IMG/VR virus record: IMGVR_UViG_3300033553_000062
Coordinates: 1-39,637 of that record
Length of the DNA: 39,637 nt
Source of the DNA: a virus
Strand: one strand, 5' to 3'
Part shown: positions 2,491 through 25,403 of the stretch, piece after piece
How the letters are laid out: every line of letters starts with the position of its first letter
How positions within the stretch are numbered: position 1 is the stretch's first letter
Translations under genes and position numbers: made by a program
Notes under the pieces: model-generated
What the model saw: only the letters and a program-made list of their open reading frames with translations
Told to the model about the DNA's origin: nothing
Database searches by the model: none

Positions 2491-2940
2491 GTGCCACAAC
2501 CTCGATTGATCACCCTCAGAGGCTTCGAACAGATCCCTGGCGTAGAGACACACTTCGGCTATTCCCGAAAGGAGATGGACCGGTGGTGGCTGGTTGTCAT
2601 CCGAGAGGATGCCGTCCCCGGACACCGGCTGGCCCACTACTGCGGCCTGACTCCTCCCGAGGACGGTATCGACGGCCCGATGATCCCCGAGTTCTCCCTT
2701 GGGTGGGATGACGAAATGCTTCTGTTCGACCACCGTAGCGCCGTCCTCTTCAAGGAAGATCTCGAGCAGATGTTCTCGAACGAGACGTGGGGGGTGGTGA
2801 ACTTCGCTGACCTTGCTTCTGATCTGCCGGGGGTATCCCGAACAATCCGTCCAGGCAGTGTCGAGGCACTTTCCTGGCCCTACGTCCACAAGTTCGGCGC
2901 CACTTTCCCTTGTGCCGATGACGGCGAGGAACTATGTTGA
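2491..2940 (+). CDS. Hypothetical protein
   Basis: A 149-residue protein starting at GTG 2491, chosen because AAGGAAGG lies at 2473-2480. It is acidic, rich in aromatic residues and looks globular (RWWLVVIREDAV, FSLGWDDEMLLFD). No signal peptide, membrane segment or known motif was recognised. It stands between the HicA-like gene and a small basic protein and may be the first gene of its own transcript, given the inverted repeat in front of it. Confidence 0.65.
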   Translation: MPQPRLITLRGFEQIPGVETHFGYSRKEMDRWWLVVIREDAVPGHRLAHYCGLTPPEDGIDGPMIPEFSLGWDDEMLLFDHRSAVLFKEDLEQMFSNETWGVVNFADLASDLPGVSRTIRPGSVEALSWPYVHKFGATFPCADDGEELC

Positions 2941-3001
2941 TACTTGCCGAACCGAACGACCCGAATGGGTCGATGAAGATACAACGAGGAGAATCACTCT
3001 G

Positions 3002-3364
3002 ATGGCAACTGCCACCGATGATAAGCCCAAGGTCACCCGCAACGTGGAGCGCCCCCGCGGCTGGCTCTCGGATTCCGTGAAGGATGTCTGCGATGACTTC
3101 CTGACCGGGAAGATCGAACTGCCCGAGGGCAAGACGCTCACCCCCCACTACGTCGCCCAGGCCGTGGCCGACAAGGAGGGCCTCGACGCCCCGCCTTCGA
3201 CTGGCGCCGTCAGCGCCGTGTTCAAGCGTTGGGACGACTACGGGTTCGCCCTGTTCCACAAGAAGCCCTTCGCGTTCAAGGACTACTCGGCAACGGGGAA
3301 GAAGCTGGGCCTCCACGGCATCCTCGAGAAGCGCCGTGGTGCCCGCAAGACCGCTGCCGAGTAA
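3002..3364 (+). CDS. Small basic protein, possible winged-helix DNA binder
   Basis: A 120-residue protein from ATG 3002, with GAGGAGAA at 2986-2993 as binding site; an in-frame extension to 2813 overlaps the previous gene and is rejected. Residues about 40-85 (LTPHYVAQAVADKEG ... TGAVSAVFKRWDDYG) have the spacing of a helix-turn-helix followed by a wing-like strand, and both ends are rich in Lys/Arg. This suggests a small DNA-binding protein, perhaps a regulator or nucleoid-type protein. Family not identified. A strong terminator follows. Confidence 0.65.
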   Translation: MATATDDKPKVTRNVERPRGWLSDSVKDVCDDFLTGKIELPEGKTLTPHYVAQAVADKEGLDAPPSTGAVSAVFKRWDDYGFALFHKKPFAFKDYSATGKKLGLHGILEKRRGARKTAAE

Positions 3365-3420
3365 ACGGCGACCCAGTCAAGCCTGTTGATGACGTGAGTC
3401 ATCGAGGCTGACGGGAGGAA

Positions 3421-3466
3421 TGGGTCGGGGGCTGTCACGAGCACTCCCGGCCCATTTCTTCTCGTT
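3421..3466 (+). terminator. Rho-independent terminator
   Basis: TGGGTCGGG (3421-3429) pairs with CCCGGCCCA (3446-3454), nine pairs with one G-U, and is followed by the T-rich run TTTCTTCTCGTT (3455-3466). It closes the transcript that ends with the gene at 3002-3364. Confidence 0.7.
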
Positions 3467-3467
3467 C

Positions 3468-3636
3468 TATGGTCATCCATCTACGGCAACCGTGTCGATA
3501 CGATGACTGCCGTTGTGGATTGCACCGACGAGGTGTTACAGTCCATCCAGTCCCTCCTTGGCTGTCGGGTTGAGGTGAGGAAGGAACGGGGTCGTCCCGT
3601 CTGCATTGCAGACAGAGGGGCGGCCCCGTTTCGACT
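3468..3636 (+). ncRNA. Candidate short RNA between two terminator-like hairpins
   Basis: TATGGT at 3468-3473, just after the first terminator, fits a TANNNT -10 box and would start a transcript near 3480. That transcript would meet a second strong hairpin at 3585-3630, giving an RNA of about 150 bases. The same stretch also has a 55-codon open frame (ATG 3503 to stop 3670) with no ribosome binding site, which overlaps the next gene by 16 bases. A non-coding RNA, a mini-gene and a plain leader are all possible. Confidence 0.3.
3585..3630 (+). terminator. Long hairpin, terminator-like
   Basis: AACGGGGTCGTCCC (3585-3598) pairs with GGGGCGGCCCCGTT (3617-3630) over 14 positions including two G-U pairs, capped by TCTGC-ATT-GCAGA (3600-3612). 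Only a weak T-run follows (TCGACTT). It sits 25 bases before the protease start, so it may be a terminator, an attenuator or a stability element. Confidence 0.55.
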
Positions 3637-3654
3637 TGCGGTATGCTGCTCGCC

Positions 3655-4440
3655 ATGGCAACAACCTTGAAGAACGGCATGAGCGTCGAGAACGAACGGC
3701 TTGATCGTCTCTACGAACTCGACTGGCGGTCGCTGAACTACACCCTCGACGCCAAACTGGGGATCGACACCGAGCCGATGTACCGGCCCCGCTCCTACAC
3801 GTGGTCGGTTGATGCCTGGCTGGATCAGGGTCCGGACGGCGCCTGCGTGGGCTTCGCCTTCGCTCACGATCTGATCGCTCGTCCGTACGTGGTCAAGGGG
3901 GTAACAGCGAAGTATGCCAAGGAGGTCATCTACATCGAGGCGCAGCGCATCGATCCGTGGCCCGGTGGCTCGTATGCTGGTGCCGATCCGTTCTACGAGG
4001 GAACCTCGATCCTTGCTGGTGCCAAGATCTGCAAGCAGAACGGCTACTTCGAGTCGTACCACTGGGCACTGACCGCAGAAGAGGTCGCCCGAGGTATCGC
4101 CTACTTCGGACCATGCGTGCTGGGCCTCAACTGGTACGAGGGAATGTTCCACCCGGATCCACAGGGCTACATCCGCCCTCATGGTGGCCTGGCCGGTGGG
4201 CACGCCATCCTCGCCAACGCCGTCAAGATCGTTTACAAATCTGGAACCGGCTGGTGGAATCGCACGTGGCGCGATGTCGATCACGACAAGTCCTACGTCA
4301 CCATCCACAACTCCTGGGGCAAGAACTGGGCCAAGGAGGGCACCGCCAAGTTGTCGTTCACCGATCTGCAACGCCTACTCAACGAGCAAGGCGATGCCTG
4401 CTTCCCAGCCCGCACACATCTCCGTAGCGTCGAAGTCTGA
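3655..4440 (+). CDS. Papain-like (C1A-type) cysteine peptidase
   Basis: A 261-residue protein with the papain active-site pattern: Gln58 and Cys64 in DQGPDGACVGFAF, His183 in GGHAILAN and Asn219 in HNSWGKNW. It should hydrolyse peptide bonds with a Cys-His-Asn centre. There is no signal peptide, and the N-terminal 45 residues are too short for a classical inhibitory propeptide, so it probably acts inside the infected cell. ATG 3655 is preferred over ATG 3643. No ribosome binding site is visible, but TATGCT at 3642-3647 would start transcription almost on the ATG, suggesting a leaderless message. It overlaps the next gene as TGATG. The target is unknown; a role in virion processing is possible, though structural genes lie on the other arm. 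Confidence 0.85.
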   Translation: MATTLKNGMSVENERLDRLYELDWRSLNYTLDAKLGIDTEPMYRPRSYTWSVDAWLDQGPDGACVGFAFAHDLIARPYVVKGVTAKYAKEVIYIEAQRIDPWPGGSYAGADPFYEGTSILAGAKICKQNGYFESYHWALTAEEVARGIAYFGPCVLGLNWYEGMFHPDPQGYIRPHGGLAGGHAILANAVKIVYKSGTGWWNRTWRDVDHDKSYVTIHNSWGKNWAKEGTAKLSFTDLQRLLNEQGDACFPARTHLRSVEV

Positions 4441-4730
4441 TGCCGAAGCGACCCATGAAGGCATCGACGAATGGCCTGCCGATCCGGTCGTTCCTGTTCA
4501 CACTCGATCAGGTGTCGACCATGCTGGAGATCGGCACCAAGTCGCTGAAGGATGGTTACATCCACTTCCATGGTCGCTCCGTGGGGCCAAGGCCGTTGGA
4601 CAAGATTCTGGCACGCAACCTGGCCGAGCCTGGCGAGAAGCCAGAGTGGCGCGTAGCGGAGCAGGAGTTCATCCGCTGGATGCGCCGTAAGGGGTTTCGC
4701 GTGTACCAGAACGACTGGACCTTGCAGTAG
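4440..4730 (+). CDS. Helix-turn-helix DNA-binding protein
   Basis: A 96-residue protein translationally coupled to the protease gene (TGATG at 4438-4442). Residues 17-45 (FLFTLDQVSTMLEIGTKSL) look like a MerR/excisionase-type helix-turn-helix. The C-terminal half, EWRVAEQEFIRWMRRKGFRVY, is a pattern that I recall from actinophage regulators. It is probably a small transcription regulator or accessory DNA binder. Its nearest target could be the inverted repeats directly downstream (4737-4776), which would make it autoregulatory or a control of the next operon; this is inference. Confidence 0.7.
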   Translation: MPKRPMKASTNGLPIRSFLFTLDQVSTMLEIGTKSLKDGYIHFHGRSVGPRPLDKILARNLAEPGEKPEWRVAEQEFIRWMRRKGFRVYQNDWTLQ

Positions 4731-5294: not shown

Positions 5295-5516
5295 ATGGCT
5301 AACCAAGAATCTCGAGGCGGCTCCTCGCAATACAAGGGAGTCACCTGGGACAAGGCTCGCCAAAAGTGGCGAGCACAGATCCGAATCAATGGCAAGTCGA
5401 TCTGCATAGGCCGCTTTGCCGTGGAGGAGGATGCTGCTGAAGCGTACAACGCTGCAGCATTCGAGGCGTGGGGCGAGTTCTCACGTCTCAATGACACCAA
5501 TCCGAAGAAGTCATAA
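5295..5516 (+). CDS. Stand-alone AP2 DNA-binding domain protein
   Basis: A 73-residue protein that is little more than one AP2/ERF domain (residues 13-66): YKGVTWDKARQKWRAQI, then a strand with INGKSICIGRF, then the helix EEDAAEAYNAAAFEAWG. In phages this domain usually sits at the C-terminus of HNH homing endonucleases. Here no HNH part is present in any upstream frame, so this is either a relic of an inserted endonuclease or a functional small DNA binder. No clear ribosome binding site precedes ATG 5295. It interrupts an otherwise close pair of genes. Confidence 0.8.
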   Translation: MANQESRGGSSQYKGVTWDKARQKWRAQIRINGKSICIGRFAVEEDAAEAYNAAAFEAWGEFSRLNDTNPKKS

Positions 5517-5542: not shown

Positions 5543-6409
5543 ATGAGCGATACACTTCCCGAGAAGTCCGGGTCCACCGACCTGGCCCGTTCCGACATCG
5601 GGGCACCCGAGGGTCTGGAGGACATGGATTCCTCCGATCTGGTGATGCCCCGCCTGAAGATCGACCACTCCACTGGAGTCTTCGAGGACAACCTGTCCGG
5701 CACGCAGTACGACAAGATCGAGGTGATTCTCCTCGGCCTGATCAAGCAGCGCATCCTGTGGTCGCCGGAACCGTCTGGCGACAACGACAAGCCCCTGTGC
5801 AAGTCGTTCGACTTCCACCGCGGCATCCCCGGTGACGGCTTCCCCGTCAAGGCTTCCGGGTTCGATGCCAACGAGGCCGAATCGGGTGAACTGCCCTGCG
5901 CCGACTGCAAGTTGAAGGACTGGGGCAGCCACCCCAACCGGGACACGCCCTGGTGCTCTGAGCAGTACACCTTCGCCCTGCTCCTGCCGATGTCGGACGA
6001 CGACCCCACTGGCGCCCCGGCGCTCCTGTCGGTCCAGCGTTCGGCCATCAAGCCGTCGAAGCAGTACCTGACGGCCTTCGCCCGCAGCAAGAACCCGCTG
6101 TACACGGTGCACACCGAGATCAGCCTCGACCAGCGCCGCCGCGGATCCGTGGACTACGCCGTGCCGAAGTTCATCCGTCGTGGCGCCACCGACGAGTCGC
6201 TGTGGCCCGAGTTCGCCCACCAGTACCGCATGATTCGCGACTTCGTGTCGACCCCCTCCGGGTCGGGTGACGAGGAGGTCACAGTGACGACGAAGGCCCC
6301 GGCCAAGGAAGAGGCGCCCGCCCCGACCACCCCGTCGGATGCCCCCGCCCCTGCTGCCGCCGACACCCCCGCACCCGCCGACGACGACGAGGATGACTTG
6401 CCCTTCTAG
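5543..6409 (+). CDS. SSB-like single-stranded DNA-binding protein
   Basis: A 288-residue protein. Residues 30-235 form a globular domain with four cysteines that could bind zinc (Cys86, Cys119, Cys122, Cys138 in CADCKLKDW ... PWC). A Pro/Ala-rich linker (about 250-278) leads to the acidic tip DDDEDDLPF. That tip is the hallmark of bacterial SSB proteins, where it recruits partner enzymes (known for E. coli SSB, ending DDDIPF). The architecture and place before a helicase operon support an ssDNA-binding or recombination-mediator role. The core does not look like a standard SSB OB-fold, so the assignment rests on the tail and context. Confidence 0.6.
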   Translation: MSDTLPEKSGSTDLARSDIGAPEGLEDMDSSDLVMPRLKIDHSTGVFEDNLSGTQYDKIEVILLGLIKQRILWSPEPSGDNDKPLCKSFDFHRGIPGDGFPVKASGFDANEAESGELPCADCKLKDWGSHPNRDTPWCSEQYTFALLLPMSDDDPTGAPALLSVQRSAIKPSKQYLTAFARSKNPLYTVHTEISLDQRRRGSVDYAVPKFIRRGATDESLWPEFAHQYRMIRDFVSTPSGSGDEEVTVTTKAPAKEEAPAPTTPSDAPAPAAADTPAPADDDEDDLPF

Positions 6410-9142: not shown

Positions 9143-9495
9143 ATATGCCAGAGGTCAACTGGACGTACGGATGTCGACTCGTTCGTGTCATAGATGGCGA
9201 TACCGTCGTCATGGACATCGACAACGGCTTCCGCAATCGCGAGCAGCACGCCATCCGACTCGTTGACGTGAACGCACCCGAGATGTTCAGCGGGGACGAC
9301 CGCGAGCACGGCAAGCGGATTCGGCAGATGGTGATCGAGTGGTTCGATCGTCAGCCCGTCACGCAGACGTTCCCGTTCATCATCCAGACCCTGGCCGACC
9401 GTCAGACCTTCAACCGGTACATCGGAACGATCTGGTCCCGTGATACCGGCGAGTCCCTCAACCAGTTCCTTGTCGACGAAGGGTATCAAGCATGA
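9139..9495 (+). CDS. Staphylococcal-nuclease-like (thermonuclease) protein
   Basis: A 118-residue OB-fold nuclease of the SNase family. The signature VIDGDTVVMDID is at residues 17-28. IRLVDVNAPE (39-48) supplies Arg40 and Glu48, matching Arg35 and Glu43 of the staphylococcal enzyme, and Arg93 in NRYIGTIW would match Arg87. The C-terminal helix LNQFLVDEGYQA is also typical. The length is that of the bare domain. There is no signal peptide, so it probably acts in the cell on phage or host nucleic acid. Calcium binding is inferred from Asp21. Confidence 0.87.
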   Translation: MNMPEVNWTYGCRLVRVIDGDTVVMDIDNGFRNREQHAIRLVDVNAPEMFSGDDREHGKRIRQMVIEWFDRQPVTQTFPFIIQTLADRQTFNRYIGTIWSRDTGESLNQFLVDEGYQA

Positions 9496-10472
9496 CAGAG
9501 CACATCCACGGGATCTTCAAGTTCATCGATCCACCGAGCGATACAGCCCTCCAGCAGTGCACCGATGCCATCGACGCCTGCTTCTACCCTTGGGAGAGAT
9601 GCCTGCCCGAGTTGAAGGCTGAGTCCGAGGGCAAGGTGACGGTCCGTTGGGAGGACACCGGCCAGGGCAACACCGGCATGTACTACGGCTCCAAGGATCG
9701 GGTCCAGAACGTCATCCTGCTCAACAACCGCTACTCGGTGACCAACTACGCATTCACCATGCTGCACGAGGCAGGTCACATGGTGGACGACTGCGCCCTG
9801 CGGGACGACCAGCGCCAGGCGCTCCTGGCGAAGTGGCACAAGGATCTCGACGGTCGCTGGGACGGCTACATCCAGAACGGCGAAGAGATCTCTTGGTCCC
9901 ACAACACACCCCACACCCACTCGACCTACCAGAGTGGCTGGCGGGTGTCGGATGCCGACTACTTCCACCGACCCAACGAAGCCTTCGCTGACGCCTTCGT
10001 GGCCTGCTTCGCCCCGAGTATCTTCTCCTACCCCCGCTTCGCTCACTGGAGTAACGACCTCGCCGGGGTGCGTTCGATCGTCCTGAGCCAGCCCGCACCA
10101 CCGCCACCGCCGAAGGTCTGGCCGTTCCCGAACGACTCGATCTACCGGCTGTACCGAGCCACGTTCCTGCGCGAACCGGACCGTGGTGGCTATGACTACT
10201 GGAAGGCCCGCCTCGACACAGGCACGTCGCTCCACACCATCGCCAACGGCTTCACCGGGTCCACCGAGTTCCGGCAGCGGTACGGGGCACTCGACAACCG
10301 GGCCTTCGTCACACTCTTGTATCGCAATGTGATGGAGCGTGCTCCGGATGCCGGTGGCCTGGCTCACTGGGTCGGTGCGCTGGACGGGGGCCAGAGCCGC
10401 GGCCATGTCCTGGTCGGGTTCTCCGAGTCCACCGAGTTGAAGAACAAGATCAACAAGGAACGCATGACGTGA
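9492..10472 (+). CDS. HExxH zinc metallopeptidase with C-terminal DUF4214 domain
   Basis: A 326-residue fusion. Residues 1-195 carry LHEAGH (His92, Glu93, His96) and NEAFADAF (Glu163), consistent with a gluzincin-type zinc peptidase in which Glu163 is the third ligand. A PAPPPPP linker (201-207) follows. Residues 216-320 form a DUF4214-like unit with the repeated pattern YRLYRATFLREPDRGGYDYW and LYRNVMERAPDAGGLAHW. DUF4214 occurs in bacterial surface and secreted proteins. No signal peptide is seen. The gene lies within a DNA-metabolism operon, which is odd for a protein of this make-up. Substrate unknown. Confidence 0.75.
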   Translation: MTEHIHGIFKFIDPPSDTALQQCTDAIDACFYPWERCLPELKAESEGKVTVRWEDTGQGNTGMYYGSKDRVQNVILLNNRYSVTNYAFTMLHEAGHMVDDCALRDDQRQALLAKWHKDLDGRWDGYIQNGEEISWSHNTPHTHSTYQSGWRVSDADYFHRPNEAFADAFVACFAPSIFSYPRFAHWSNDLAGVRSIVLSQPAPPPPPKVWPFPNDSIYRLYRATFLREPDRGGYDYWKARLDTGTSLHTIANGFTGSTEFRQRYGALDNRAFVTLLYRNVMERAPDAGGLAHWVGALDGGQSRGHVLVGFSESTELKNKINKERMT

Positions 10473-20049: not shown

Positions 20050-20075
20050 TCCATCAACCAAGGAGAATGAACATC

Positions 20076-20594
20076 ATGAAGAAGCGCAAACCTATTCGCT
20101 CCCTCATCCTGATCACCCTCGCCCTCACCCTTTCTCTTCTTTCTGGAGCGTGTACCTGGGAGGACACGCTTGTCTGGGACAAGATCAATAGCGATCCACC
20201 CGGCACGATGAACCACGTCATCTACACCGCCACCGGCCAGAACATGCAGGCCGCTGGCCACTCCCACCCCTGGCAGAAGGCCCCCGCTCCACGTACCGGC
20301 TCCGTGGATGACGCCATTCAACGGGCCTTCGGTGATCTCGGATCCGGTGTCGTCTCCCAGGCCCATCGAGTGGCGCAGTGCGAGTCCGAAAAGGATCCAC
20401 GGGCACTGAACGGCAACACCGCCTACTCGGCTGCCGGACTGTTCCAGATCATCAAGCAGTGGGCCACCCGCTACGGCCAGGTCACTGGCGTCCCCTACTA
20501 CGACGGTCGCTTCGACCCCTACGCAAACGCTCGCTTCGCCCGGTACTTGTACGACGATCGAGGCGGCTGGGGCCATTGGGCCTGCCAACCTTGA
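20076..20594 (+). CDS. Lysozyme-like lipoprotein (transglycosylase fold)
   Basis: A 172-residue protein. ATG 20076 is preferred to ATG 20067 because AAGGAG (20060-20065) has proper spacing only to it. Residues 1-26 are a lipoprotein-type signal (basic start, hydrophobic core, LLSGAC; the lipobox is not canonical at -3), making Cys26 the likely acylated residue. Residues 95-172 resemble the SLT/Rpf lysozyme-like domain: CESEKDPRA with Glu103 as the probable acid, YSAAGLFQI, and the C-terminal GGWGHWAC. It probably cuts or binds peptidoglycan at the membrane surface. It could aid lysis or alter the wall against superinfection. Confidence 0.75.
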   Translation: MKKRKPIRSLILITLALTLSLLSGACTWEDTLVWDKINSDPPGTMNHVIYTATGQNMQAAGHSHPWQKAPAPRTGSVDDAIQRAFGDLGSGVVSQAHRVAQCESEKDPRALNGNTAYSAAGLFQIIKQWATRYGQVTGVPYYDGRFDPYANARFARYLYDDRGGWGHWACQP

Positions 20595-23284: not shown

Positions 23285-23589
23285 TCCATGCTCGCCTTCC
23301 GTAGTGTGGCTGCAGTCGGGCCGACTGCCAGCACCGGCGCCACCTTGACCGGGCTGCCGAAGTAGCGGAACACCTGAATGAAGTTCAGTTCGACCACAGC
23401 ACCGTTGGCGATCACCACGTCGGCCAAGGGCCAGATGACATCGGTGGTGACATCGACCGCAGTGCCATCCGCGATGACGCCATCGGTCTGCGGCTCACCA
23501 TTGGGCCAGAGGTTGCCGAACGTGCCACCGGTCGAACCGAATCCGATGTCTGGATCCCCAAAGGGCTTGTTGCCGTGGATGAGCGCCAT
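23281..23589 (-). CDS. Small tail-associated protein
   Basis: A 102-residue protein from ATG 23589 (TAATG overlap with the sialidase-like gene); the longer frame to 23826 lies in that gene and is rejected. It is Gly-rich at the start (FGSTGGTFGNLW) and then beta-rich (DVTTDVIWPLADVVIANGAV). Probably a tail-tip or fibre component by position. No family recognised. Confidence 0.6.
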   Translation of the reverse strand: MALIHGNKPFGDPDIGFGSTGGTFGNLWPNGEPQTDGVIADGTAVDVTTDVIWPLADVVIANGAVVELNFIQVFRYFGSPVKVAPVLAVGPTAATLRKASME

Positions 23590-25403
23590 TAGATGAACAC
23601 CGCCCCCCACCGTTCGAAGCCGCCGATCGAGAAGGTCCGAAGAGTGGCATACGGACTGTCGGCTCCACCCGTATCCTCGGTCGCAACCGTCCACTGGTAG
23701 GTCATGCCCTGCTCGAAGTCGGCTGACCCGAAGGTGGCCTCGGTAGTTGCCGTAACGACATAGGCGGGCGCCATCGGCACCCACGCCGAGCCGTTCCAGA
23801 ACTCCCACGGGTTGAGGTTGCGCCAAGCCGTGTAGGCGCCCAGCCCCCCCAGAGCATCGGCAGTGGCGATGGCGTACTGGTAGGTGTCGGCGTCGGCAGG
23901 CCAGTCGGTGATCGTCTTGGACGAGGCCGTGCCAGCGTTGGTGACCGGACCGGCACCCCAGGTGTTGGCCGTGCGGGGGATGATCGAGCCATACGTGACG
24001 TTGTACGGGGAGGTGGTGCCGTCGGTGTAGATGAACTCGATGCGGCCGTTCGAGAAGCCACGCTTGGCGCTGACGTAAGGGGCGAAGTTGGCCGAGACAT
24101 CAATGACTACAACAGGGTCAAGAGCGGTTGTGGCTCTCACCCACTTCCGGTAACCGACTTTCGCAGTGCTCGACTCATTGAATCGTCCGGAGATGTAGAC
24201 GTCCCCATTGCCGTCGTAGGTCGCTGAGCCGGTGATGAATGGTTGAGCTGCAACCGCACCCGCTGACGCATCTTGGTCATCCAGAAGAAGGCGGGTAGTT
24301 GTGACCGTGTCGGCCGAGTCTCGCTCGTACAGCATCACGTCATAAGACGAGCCGGTAAGGCTGCCGACGAGGATCACTCGGGTGCCGTCGAACAGACAGT
24401 TGAGCCAATAGTTCGTATTAAACACATACCGGGTGTTGTCGATCTCCCGCTCGGTGCCCCACGTCCACGACCCGCCCGAATAGGTGGCCTTCTTGAACCG
24501 GATCCCGTCACCCCCTCCGGACCCACCGGTCGACCATGCGGCGTACAGGTGGGGCGTGCCACCAGCCACGGTCTTGCCGTCGCCGGTGTGGTTGAAGTCG
24601 ATGGAGGGGTAGGTGTGGCTATTGCGTGAATGGAGACCGAGCGTCCCAATCGAGCCTAAGGAGACCGCCCCACCAGAGGTAATAGTCAGCGGGTAGTGTC
24701 CGGCGCCATTGGCTGTGCCGGGGGACGTGACGAGGAACGACAACACGATGTGCGCCATCCATCCCGTGCCCTCCCTATGGGCAACGATGTCGGGGAAGTC
24801 GCCCGAAGTATTCGACCGGACCGCCGTCGCCGCGCTCCACGTCCACGAAGTCCTGCCAGCGTTCGGGGTGCCACGGCGGTAGTAGATGTAGCCGTCGTTG
24901 TGGTCCTTGTAGACGGCGTGGGCGTAGTCATCGAGGTCGATGAAGAAGGAACCATTCCCCGTGTATGTCCTTGCGCTACCACTAGCGAACGAGCCACCAA
25001 GAGCCCATGTCTCCCCATCATCGGTGGAGTAATGGAACTCCCAGTCAACCCCGAACCCAGTCTCGCCGTTGTCGAACATCGCCCACAGCACGCCGTTCTG
25101 GCAGCGGTCGACTTTGCGCTGATTCGAGTAGGCGGTCGCCGTGGCGGCGGTGGAGGTGTCGATGGTGGTCGGGCCGGAGAGAACATCCTGGGCAGTGTCG
25201 CTCCACCACTCCTCGGAGCCGTACTGAAGGCCCGAATCCATGTCGCTCGGGAGATCGGCGCTTCGGCGCTTGATCGCCCACGCCGCCTGGGGGTCACTGT
25301 CGGGGTCGTTGTGGGTCCAGGCGAAGTCCACCCCGCTGGTCAAGGCAAGGGTGTCGTTGTCGGCGGGAGATGTGACCGTGGGTGCGTCTGGAGTAACAGC
25401 CAT
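23589..25403 (-). CDS. Sialidase-like beta-propeller tail protein
   Basis: A 604-residue protein. Residues 1-50 hold a fibronectin-like segment (FAWTHNDPDSDPQAAW) also found at the end of the next gene upstream. Residues 80-460 look like a beta-propeller: the Asp-box S-T-D-D-G-E-T-W is seen near residue 126, and further blades repeat patterns such as YYRRGTPNAG and YAAWSTGGSG. The C-terminal 130 residues are again Ig/fibronectin-like (TYQWTVATEDTGG). Asp-box propellers occur in sialidases and other surface-glycan binders. Likely a receptor-binding or glycan-acting tail protein; catalytic residues were not confirmed. Confidence 0.65.
   Translation of the reverse strand: MAVTPDAPTVTSPADNDTLALTSGVDFAWTHNDPDSDPQAAWAIKRRSADLPSDMDSGLQYGSEEWWSDTAQDVLSGPTTIDTSTAATATAYSNQRKVDRCQNGVLWAMFDNGETGFGVDWEFHYSTDDGETWALGGSFASGSARTYTGNGSFFIDLDDYAHAVYKDHNDGYIYYRRGTPNAGRTSWTWSAATAVRSNTSGDFPDIVAHREGTGWMAHIVLSFLVTSPGTANGAGHYPLTITSGGAVSLGSIGTLGLHSRNSHTYPSIDFNHTGDGKTVAGGTPHLYAAWSTGGSGGGDGIRFKKATYSGGSWTWGTEREIDNTRYVFNTNYWLNCLFDGTRVILVGSLTGSSYDVMLYERDSADTVTTTRLLLDDQDASAGAVAAQPFITGSATYDGNGDVYISGRFNESSTAKVGYRKWVRATTALDPVVVIDVSANFAPYVSAKRGFSNGRIEFIYTDGTTSPYNVTYGSIIPRTANTWGAGPVTNAGTASSKTITDWPADADTYQYAIATADALGGLGAYTAWRNLNPWEFWNGSAWVPMAPAYVVTATTEATFGSADFEQGMTYQWTVATEDTGGADSPYATLRTFSIGGFERWGAVFI

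What the first reader, a model, noticed from the sequence alone, without database searches (positions are those of the whole stretch)
3655..4730. Isolated papain-like protease plus HTH gene block
A complete Cys-His-Asn papain-type peptidase without signal peptide sits in the early arm, far from structural genes, with its own flanking hairpins, a probable leaderless start (TATGCT eight bases before the ATG) and a translationally coupled DNA-binding protein. Cytoplasmic C1A peptidases are unusual in phages. The block could be a moron that acts on host or prophage regulators, or a defence or counter-defence pair.
Basis: partly seen in the sequence, partly recalled or inferred. Interest (0 to 1): 0.62.

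Follow-up and report, generated by a model that had tools for sequence, protein, structure and literature searches.

The report
Phage cytoplasmic papain-like protease, known family
This phage gene encodes a complete, apparently active papain-like protease that belongs to a protease family already catalogued in many phages; the DNA-binding gene next to it is a standard replication-region neighbour and not a dedicated partner, so the find is largely ordinary, though no one knows what these proteases cut.

Summary
The protease is real. Window 3655-4440 encodes a 261-aa single-domain C1A-type peptidase. Cys64, His183, Asn219 and Gln58 are invariant wherever those columns are present in 173 relatives. 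An 87-sequence AlphaFold2 model (pLDDT 92.9) matches xylellain, a bacterial C1A protease, at Z 21.2. It has no signal peptide or membrane segment.

It is not novel. It falls in PHROG 16701 ('peptidase'), has relatives in 44 isolated-phage records (many annotated 'peptidase' or 'cysteine protease') and about 100 IMG/VR contigs for its own branch, and xylellain-type C1A peptidases in tailed phages are already published.

The 'protease plus HTH pair' is not supported. The HTH gene (PHROG 6746) belongs to a replication module kept in the same order in Tsukamurella, Gordonia and Rhodococcus phages without the protease. None of 11 protease-bearing isolate phages has the HTH; none of 10 HTH-bearing phages has the protease. 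The protease occupies a variable slot behind the strongest hairpin in the window.

Most likely it is a stand-alone accessory protease acting in the host cytoplasm, substrate unknown. A second branch of the family sits in tail/lysis regions, so a lysis role remains a rival, weaker for this gene.

The parts
3391..3460 (+). strong hairpin after the upstream HTH-like gene (2813-3364)
   Evidence: inverted repeat 3416-3429/3446-3459; -39.7 kcal/mol, among the five best 70-nt windows of both strands; z -5.9 for 3370-3480
3571..3640 (+). very strong hairpin just before the protease; possible terminator or insulator, no U-tract
   Evidence: -45.7 kcal/mol, the strongest 70-nt window of the whole record; z -7.3; not called by the terminator scan
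3642..3647 (+). TATGCT, possible -10 element for a leaderless start
   Evidence: sequence; not above chance alone
3655..4440 (+). xylellain-type C1A cysteine peptidase, 261 aa; Gln58, Cys64, His183, Asn219; N-terminal segment of about 40 aa
   Evidence: PHROG 16701 2.3e-51; PF00112 0.0088, below cut-off; model pLDDT 92.9; xylellain Z 21.2
4440..4730 (+). 96-aa HTH-like protein (PHROG 6746), start overlaps the protease stop; core module gene, not a dedicated partner
   Evidence: HTH_17 best E 0.0042 among four members, 0.11 for this one
2813..3364 (+). upstream module gene (PHROG 6622, HTH-like); the upstream edge of the variable slot
5543..6409 (+). downstream module gene (PHROG 5686, Pam3 gp34-like)

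Best explanation
A stand-alone, xylellain-type papain-family cysteine endopeptidase carried as an accessory gene in a variable slot of the phage's replication module. It is made in the host cytoplasm during the early/replication programme, possibly from its own start site behind the strong hairpin and followed by read-through into the core HTH gene. Its roughly 40-residue N-terminal segment probably lies over or near the active-site cleft, as the short pro-segments of such enzymes do, and it carries out limited proteolysis of one or a few proteins, most probably of the host. Shown by computation: the family, the fold, invariance of the catalytic residues, lack of export signals, purifying selection in relatives, lack of a constant partner gene, the position in a slot that relatives fill differently. 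Inferred: activity, timing, the role of the N-terminal segment. Guess: the host protein as substrate.
For: Catalytic Cys, His, Asn and the oxyanion Gln are invariant among 173 relatives where present; dN/dS 0.03-0.20 between ten near pairs; confident papain-fold model with best solved match xylellain, Z 21.2, rmsd 2.6 over 211 residues, and a family profile that matches the xylellain sequence at 4e-19 with DQGxxGSC, GGHA and NSWG in register; no signal peptide or TM; gene order HTH-a / variable genes / HTH-b / gp34-like / SNF2 helicase / DnaQ / clamp in TIN2, Amore2 and Perlina without the protease; neighbours of the protease differ in almost every relative of its branch; codon composition like that of the neighbours.
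Against: No activity, expression or substrate data. The sister branch (starred branch, support 99) lies mostly in tail/lysis regions, so the ancestral role may be lytic. One sub-branch sits beside ribonucleotide reductase genes, which could mean a phage-protein substrate. No closer relative of this virus was found in which presence and absence of the gene could be compared.
Confidence: 0.6

Rival explanations
1. Lysis accessory: the peptidase is released with the endolysin through the holin and cuts envelope proteins or peptidoglycan cross-bridges, as the Gordonia/Arthrobacter relatives between lysin A and holin suggest.
For: In GMA2, Morgana, Lilbeanie, BlueNGold and Mufasa8 the gene is next to lysin A and/or holin genes; many contigs of that branch have it near tail and putative lysin genes; a close relative of the family in GMA2 was deposited as 'putative lysin'.
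Against: The window protein is in the other branch, where contexts are unrelated to lysis. In the window the gene is in the replication arm, and the only candidate wall-degrading enzyme found, an SLT-domain protein with an apparent lipobox, is about 16 kb away.
Confidence: 0.15
2. Counter-defence or host-takeover protease with one specific host target, for instance a defence sensor, a repressor or a transcription factor; this is the specific form of the main explanation.
For: Stand-alone, spotty, strongly selected, cytoplasmic, accessory position.
Against: No link to defence genes or PADLOC models; a host target is not demonstrated by any computation here.
Confidence: 0.25
3. Processing of a phage protein (maturation of a phage polypeptide, or proteolysis of a phage regulator such as the coupled HTH protein).
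For: Translational overlap with the HTH gene; a branch of relatives linked to ribonucleotide reductase genes.
Against: The HTH is conserved in phages without the protease and absent from phages with it; no single phage gene accompanies the protease.
Confidence: 0.1
4. The two genes are a dedicated functional pair (protease-regulator, or toxin-antitoxin like).
For: One-base overlap of stop and start.
Against: 0 of 11 protease phages have the HTH, 0 of 10 HTH phages have the protease; the HTH profile finds no match in about 180 other protease loci; gene order explains the HTH's position.
Confidence: 0.03

Closest known systems
PHROG 16701 ('peptidase') and the actinophage 'cysteine protease' genes, e.g. 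Streptomyces phages BillNye, Circinus, Muntaha, Wakanda
   Same: Same family, 41-46% identity over 90-95% of the protein, same catalytic residues, cytoplasmic, outside the structural genes
   Different: Other genomic place (after a terminase gene, among tRNA genes); the window protein has insertions at about residues 106-111 and 193-209
Xylellain (Xylella fastidiosa C1A cysteine protease, PDB 3ois)
   Same: Single-domain papain fold with a short N-terminal segment; best solved structure for the model (Z 21.2) and best PDB sequence match of the family profile
   Different: Only 18% identity over the structural alignment; bacterial chromosomal gene; longer loops
Short xylellain-type C1A peptidases acquired by Caudoviricetes (PMC10380794)
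   Same: That paper reports independent acquisitions of short bacterial C1A peptidases by Myoviridae and Siphoviridae
   Different: Whether this very branch is among its cases could not be checked, since its supplement was not available
Lysis-cassette cysteine proteases of Gordonia phages GMA2, Forza, Morgana, Lilbeanie (sister branch)
   Same: Same domain and catalytic residues, 28-31% identity
   Different: Between lysin A and holin; many environmental members of that branch carry a Pro-rich linker and a short C-terminal motif which the window protein lacks

Membership tests
C1A papain family (xylellain-type short peptidase) | Cys-His-Asn triad with oxyanion Gln in papain order | tested here: met
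   Gln58, Cys64, His183, Asn219; invariant in relatives where the column is present; aligned with the same residues of xylellain
C1A papain family (xylellain-type short peptidase) | Papain fold | tested here: met
   Model pLDDT 92.9; xylellain Z 21.2 and cathepsins/papain Z 15-18.
C1A papain family (xylellain-type short peptidase) | Pfam PF00112 above its curated cut-off | tested here: inconclusive
   16.6 bits against a cut-off of 20.7 for this protein alone; the family profile finds xylellain and cathepsins B at 1e-9 to 4e-19
C1A papain family (xylellain-type short peptidase) | Short N-terminal segment before the catalytic domain | tested here: met
   About 40 residues with conserved DxRS-like motif, in register with D-R-D of xylellain; model range 1-255 aligned
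C1A papain family (xylellain-type short peptidase) | Cys-dependent peptidase activity | not testable with these tools
   needs purified protein
PHROG 16701 | Full-length match to the family profile | tested here: met
   E 2.3e-51, residues 16-253 on profile 5-231 of 234
Phage lysis-cassette protease | Gene next to endolysin/holin | tested here: not met
   neighbours are an HTH-like gene and replication genes; nearest candidate wall enzyme about 16 kb away
Protease-HTH two-gene module | The two genes co-occur in other genomes | tested here: not met
   0 of 11 and 0 of 10 records; no HTH match in other protease loci
Known anti-phage defence system | Match to a PADLOC model | tested here: inconclusive
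   No match of either protein; this does not exclude an undescribed system or an anti-defence protein

The most novel reading that the evidence does not exclude
A phage-encoded cytoplasmic papain-family protease that disarms a host defence or takeover target by specific cleavage, making this branch of the family a mobile class of proteolytic host-takeover or anti-defence genes.
Probability: 0.25. Interest if true: 0.6.

Novelty: new member of a known kind. Interest (0 to 1): 0.22.

Why it matters
Phage papain-type proteases are annotated in many genomes but I found no experiment that shows what they cut. This case adds a clean example in which the gene sits alone in a variable slot of an otherwise conserved replication module, away from lysis and virion genes, and it separates the family into a branch found in tail/lysis regions and a branch that wanders. 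That makes a simple test possible (active against Cys64 mutant, with N-terminomics), and it warns against reading the neighbouring HTH gene as a partner.

Tried and rejected
Single-sequence structure prediction failed (pLDDT 33.5) and was replaced by the 87-sequence run. The patterns of the single protease and of the single HTH protein found no relatives in IMG/VR; alignment A1 was too diverse to scan with. Megablast of 20 kb of the window against phage records: no match. The 8 IMG/VR relatives of the gp34-like neighbour are 73-77 kb records of the Tsukamurella/Gordonia kind, lengths matching known isolates, so they give no closer comparison. N-terminal 'fusions' in some relatives look like over-long start choices, as low-complexity Arg-rich translations precede the conserved motif. 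Search for the C-terminal tail of the sister branch in neighbouring genes gave nothing. Rfam gave only one chance-level hit in the hairpin region. A recurring operator built on the hairpin arm was looked for; weak matches only, none placed at gene starts in a clear pattern. An inactive or decaying protease was rejected. Recent acquisition from a host of different base composition is not supported.

Full report
What was checked. The finding covers two adjacent + strand genes, 3655-4440 (261 aa) and 4440-4730 (96 aa), in a 39.6-kb virus record. The reading frames, the residue numbers Cys64, His183 and Asn219, and the one-base stop/start overlap are as described. An ATG twelve bases upstream (3643) is less likely as the start, because close relatives share the N-terminal motif L(K/R)(N/D)G...RLDR..FDxRS that begins just after the 3655 ATG.

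The protease. The single protein reaches Pfam's Peptidase_C1 only below its cut-off (16.6 against 20.7 bits), but it matches PHROG 16701, named 'peptidase', at 2.3e-51 over nearly its whole length. Tblastn finds relatives in 44 of 50,697 phage records: Streptomyces phages such as BillNye and Muntaha (41-46% identity), the uncultured GX15bay, Gordonia, Mycobacterium and Arthrobacter phages, and Xanthomonas and Stenotrophomonas phages with 320-385 kb genomes; many are already annotated 'peptidase' or 'cysteine protease'. Two profile-style scans of IMG/VR confirm 103 and 333 loci (the scans may overlap), and a scan of bacterial genomes gives 13 loci, nine of them close. In an alignment of 173 distinct sequences the catalytic Cys, His and Asn and the oxyanion Gln never vary where the column is present. 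Ten near pairs show dN/dS of 0.03 to 0.20. Neither the window protein nor its relatives show a signal peptide or N-terminal membrane segment by hydropathy; one relative alone passes the whole-protein TM threshold.

Fold. With 87 family members as input AlphaFold2 gives a model of mean pLDDT 92.9 and pTM 0.91. Its best solved match by VIA-align is xylellain, a cysteine protease of Xylella fastidiosa (Z 21.2, rmsd 2.6, 211 residues), followed by cathepsins and papain at Z 15-18; Foldseek puts the same entry first. The family profile finds the xylellain sequence at 4e-19, with the Cys, His and Asn motifs in register. In the viral model library the top hit is a C1A protein of Streptomyces phage Shady. 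A published survey of the papain family states that short, xylellain-type bacterial C1A peptidases were acquired independently by Myoviridae and Siphoviridae (PMC10380794), so the presence of such enzymes in phages is known.

The HTH gene is not a partner. The 96-aa protein belongs to PHROG 6746 and has relatives in 97 phage records, all of Gordonia, Tsukamurella or Rhodococcus; assignment as HTH rests on the annotation of those records and a weak HTH_17 match. In TIN2, Amore2 and Perlina the order is: PHROG 6622-like gene, one to four small genes, the HTH gene, the gp34-like gene, SNF2-type helicase, DnaQ-like exonuclease, sliding clamp; the window has the same order, with the protease between the first gene and the HTH gene. 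No protease is present anywhere in 10 such phages, and no HTH relative anywhere in 11 phages with the protease, nor in the other protease loci. The simplest reading is that the protease fills a variable slot in a conserved replication module. The overlap of stop and start then reflects compact packing and possibly read-through, not a functional pair.

Surroundings. The gap before the protease holds two strong hairpins; that at 3571-3640 has the lowest folding energy of any 70-nt window in the record on either strand (-45.7 kcal/mol; z -7.3). Neither has the T-run of a textbook terminator. There is no comparable structure after the block, so the genes are not flanked on both sides. TATGCT eight bases before the ATG, with no Shine-Dalgarno, fits a leaderless start, but 2 of 36 examined starts have such a motif, about what I expect by chance. 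Base composition of the gene is like that of its neighbours.

Where the relatives sit. A FastTree of 172 sequences separates a branch that holds the window protein, the Streptomyces phages and several bacterial loci (support 91, not starred) from a branch with the Gordonia and Arthrobacter genes (99, starred). In the first, the neighbours differ from locus to locus (terminase and tRNA genes, kinases, portal genes, sugar genes), with one sub-branch next to ribonucleotide reductase genes. In the second, the gene is between lysin A and holin in isolates, after lysin A in Mufasa8, and near tail or putative lysin genes in many contigs, with a Pro-rich linker and a short C-terminal motif in many members. 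The window's own candidate wall-degrading gene, an SLT-domain protein with an apparent lipobox, lies 16 kb away.

How it most likely works. I commit to an accessory peptidase made in the host cytoplasm, held in check by its N-terminal segment until folded or processed, that cuts one or a few proteins, most likely of the host. The identity as an active-type C1A peptidase is about 0.95 likely; the cytoplasmic accessory role about 0.6; a specific host or defence target is a guess, about 0.25. Lysis assistance is the main functional rival for the family (0.15 for this gene). PADLOC does not match either protein, which excludes nothing.

Verdict. Interest is low to moderate, because the biological role of the family remains unknown and is now easy to test.

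Noticed in passing
window 3571-3640 and 3391-3460: Two exceptionally stable hairpins in one 290-bp gap, including the strongest of the record, without a T-run; purpose unknown.
   Followed up: partly
window 9492-10472: A protein with an IrrE/ImmA-type metallopeptidase domain (PF06114, just above cut-off) joined to a DUF4214 domain (1.1e-32), an unusual combination in a phage replication arm; weak PADLOC capP hit.
   Followed up: no
window 5304-5516: A 70-aa protein that matches only the C-terminal part of HNH endonuclease profiles (AP2-like DNA-binding part), without the nuclease: possible homing-endonuclease remnant next to the block.
   Followed up: no
window 20067-20594: SLT transglycosylase domain behind an N-terminal hydrophobic stretch with an apparent lipobox (LLSGAC): a lipoprotein wall enzyme at the end of the + strand arm.
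   Followed up: partly
window 23589-25403 (-): 604-aa ORF at the start of the late arm without any Pfam or PHROG match.
   Followed up: no
L071-L095 (17 loci with XacN1 and RAS14 loci L010, L012): Protease genes beside or near class I ribonucleotide reductase genes in many environmental phage contigs and in two large-genome phages.
   Followed up: partly
L114, L122, L127-L129, L134-L137, L140-L178: Sister-branch proteases end in a Pro-rich linker plus a short motif such as AARTWLTAKGL or LMQAWAHDNHVTGA; function unknown, possibly a docking tail.
   Followed up: partly
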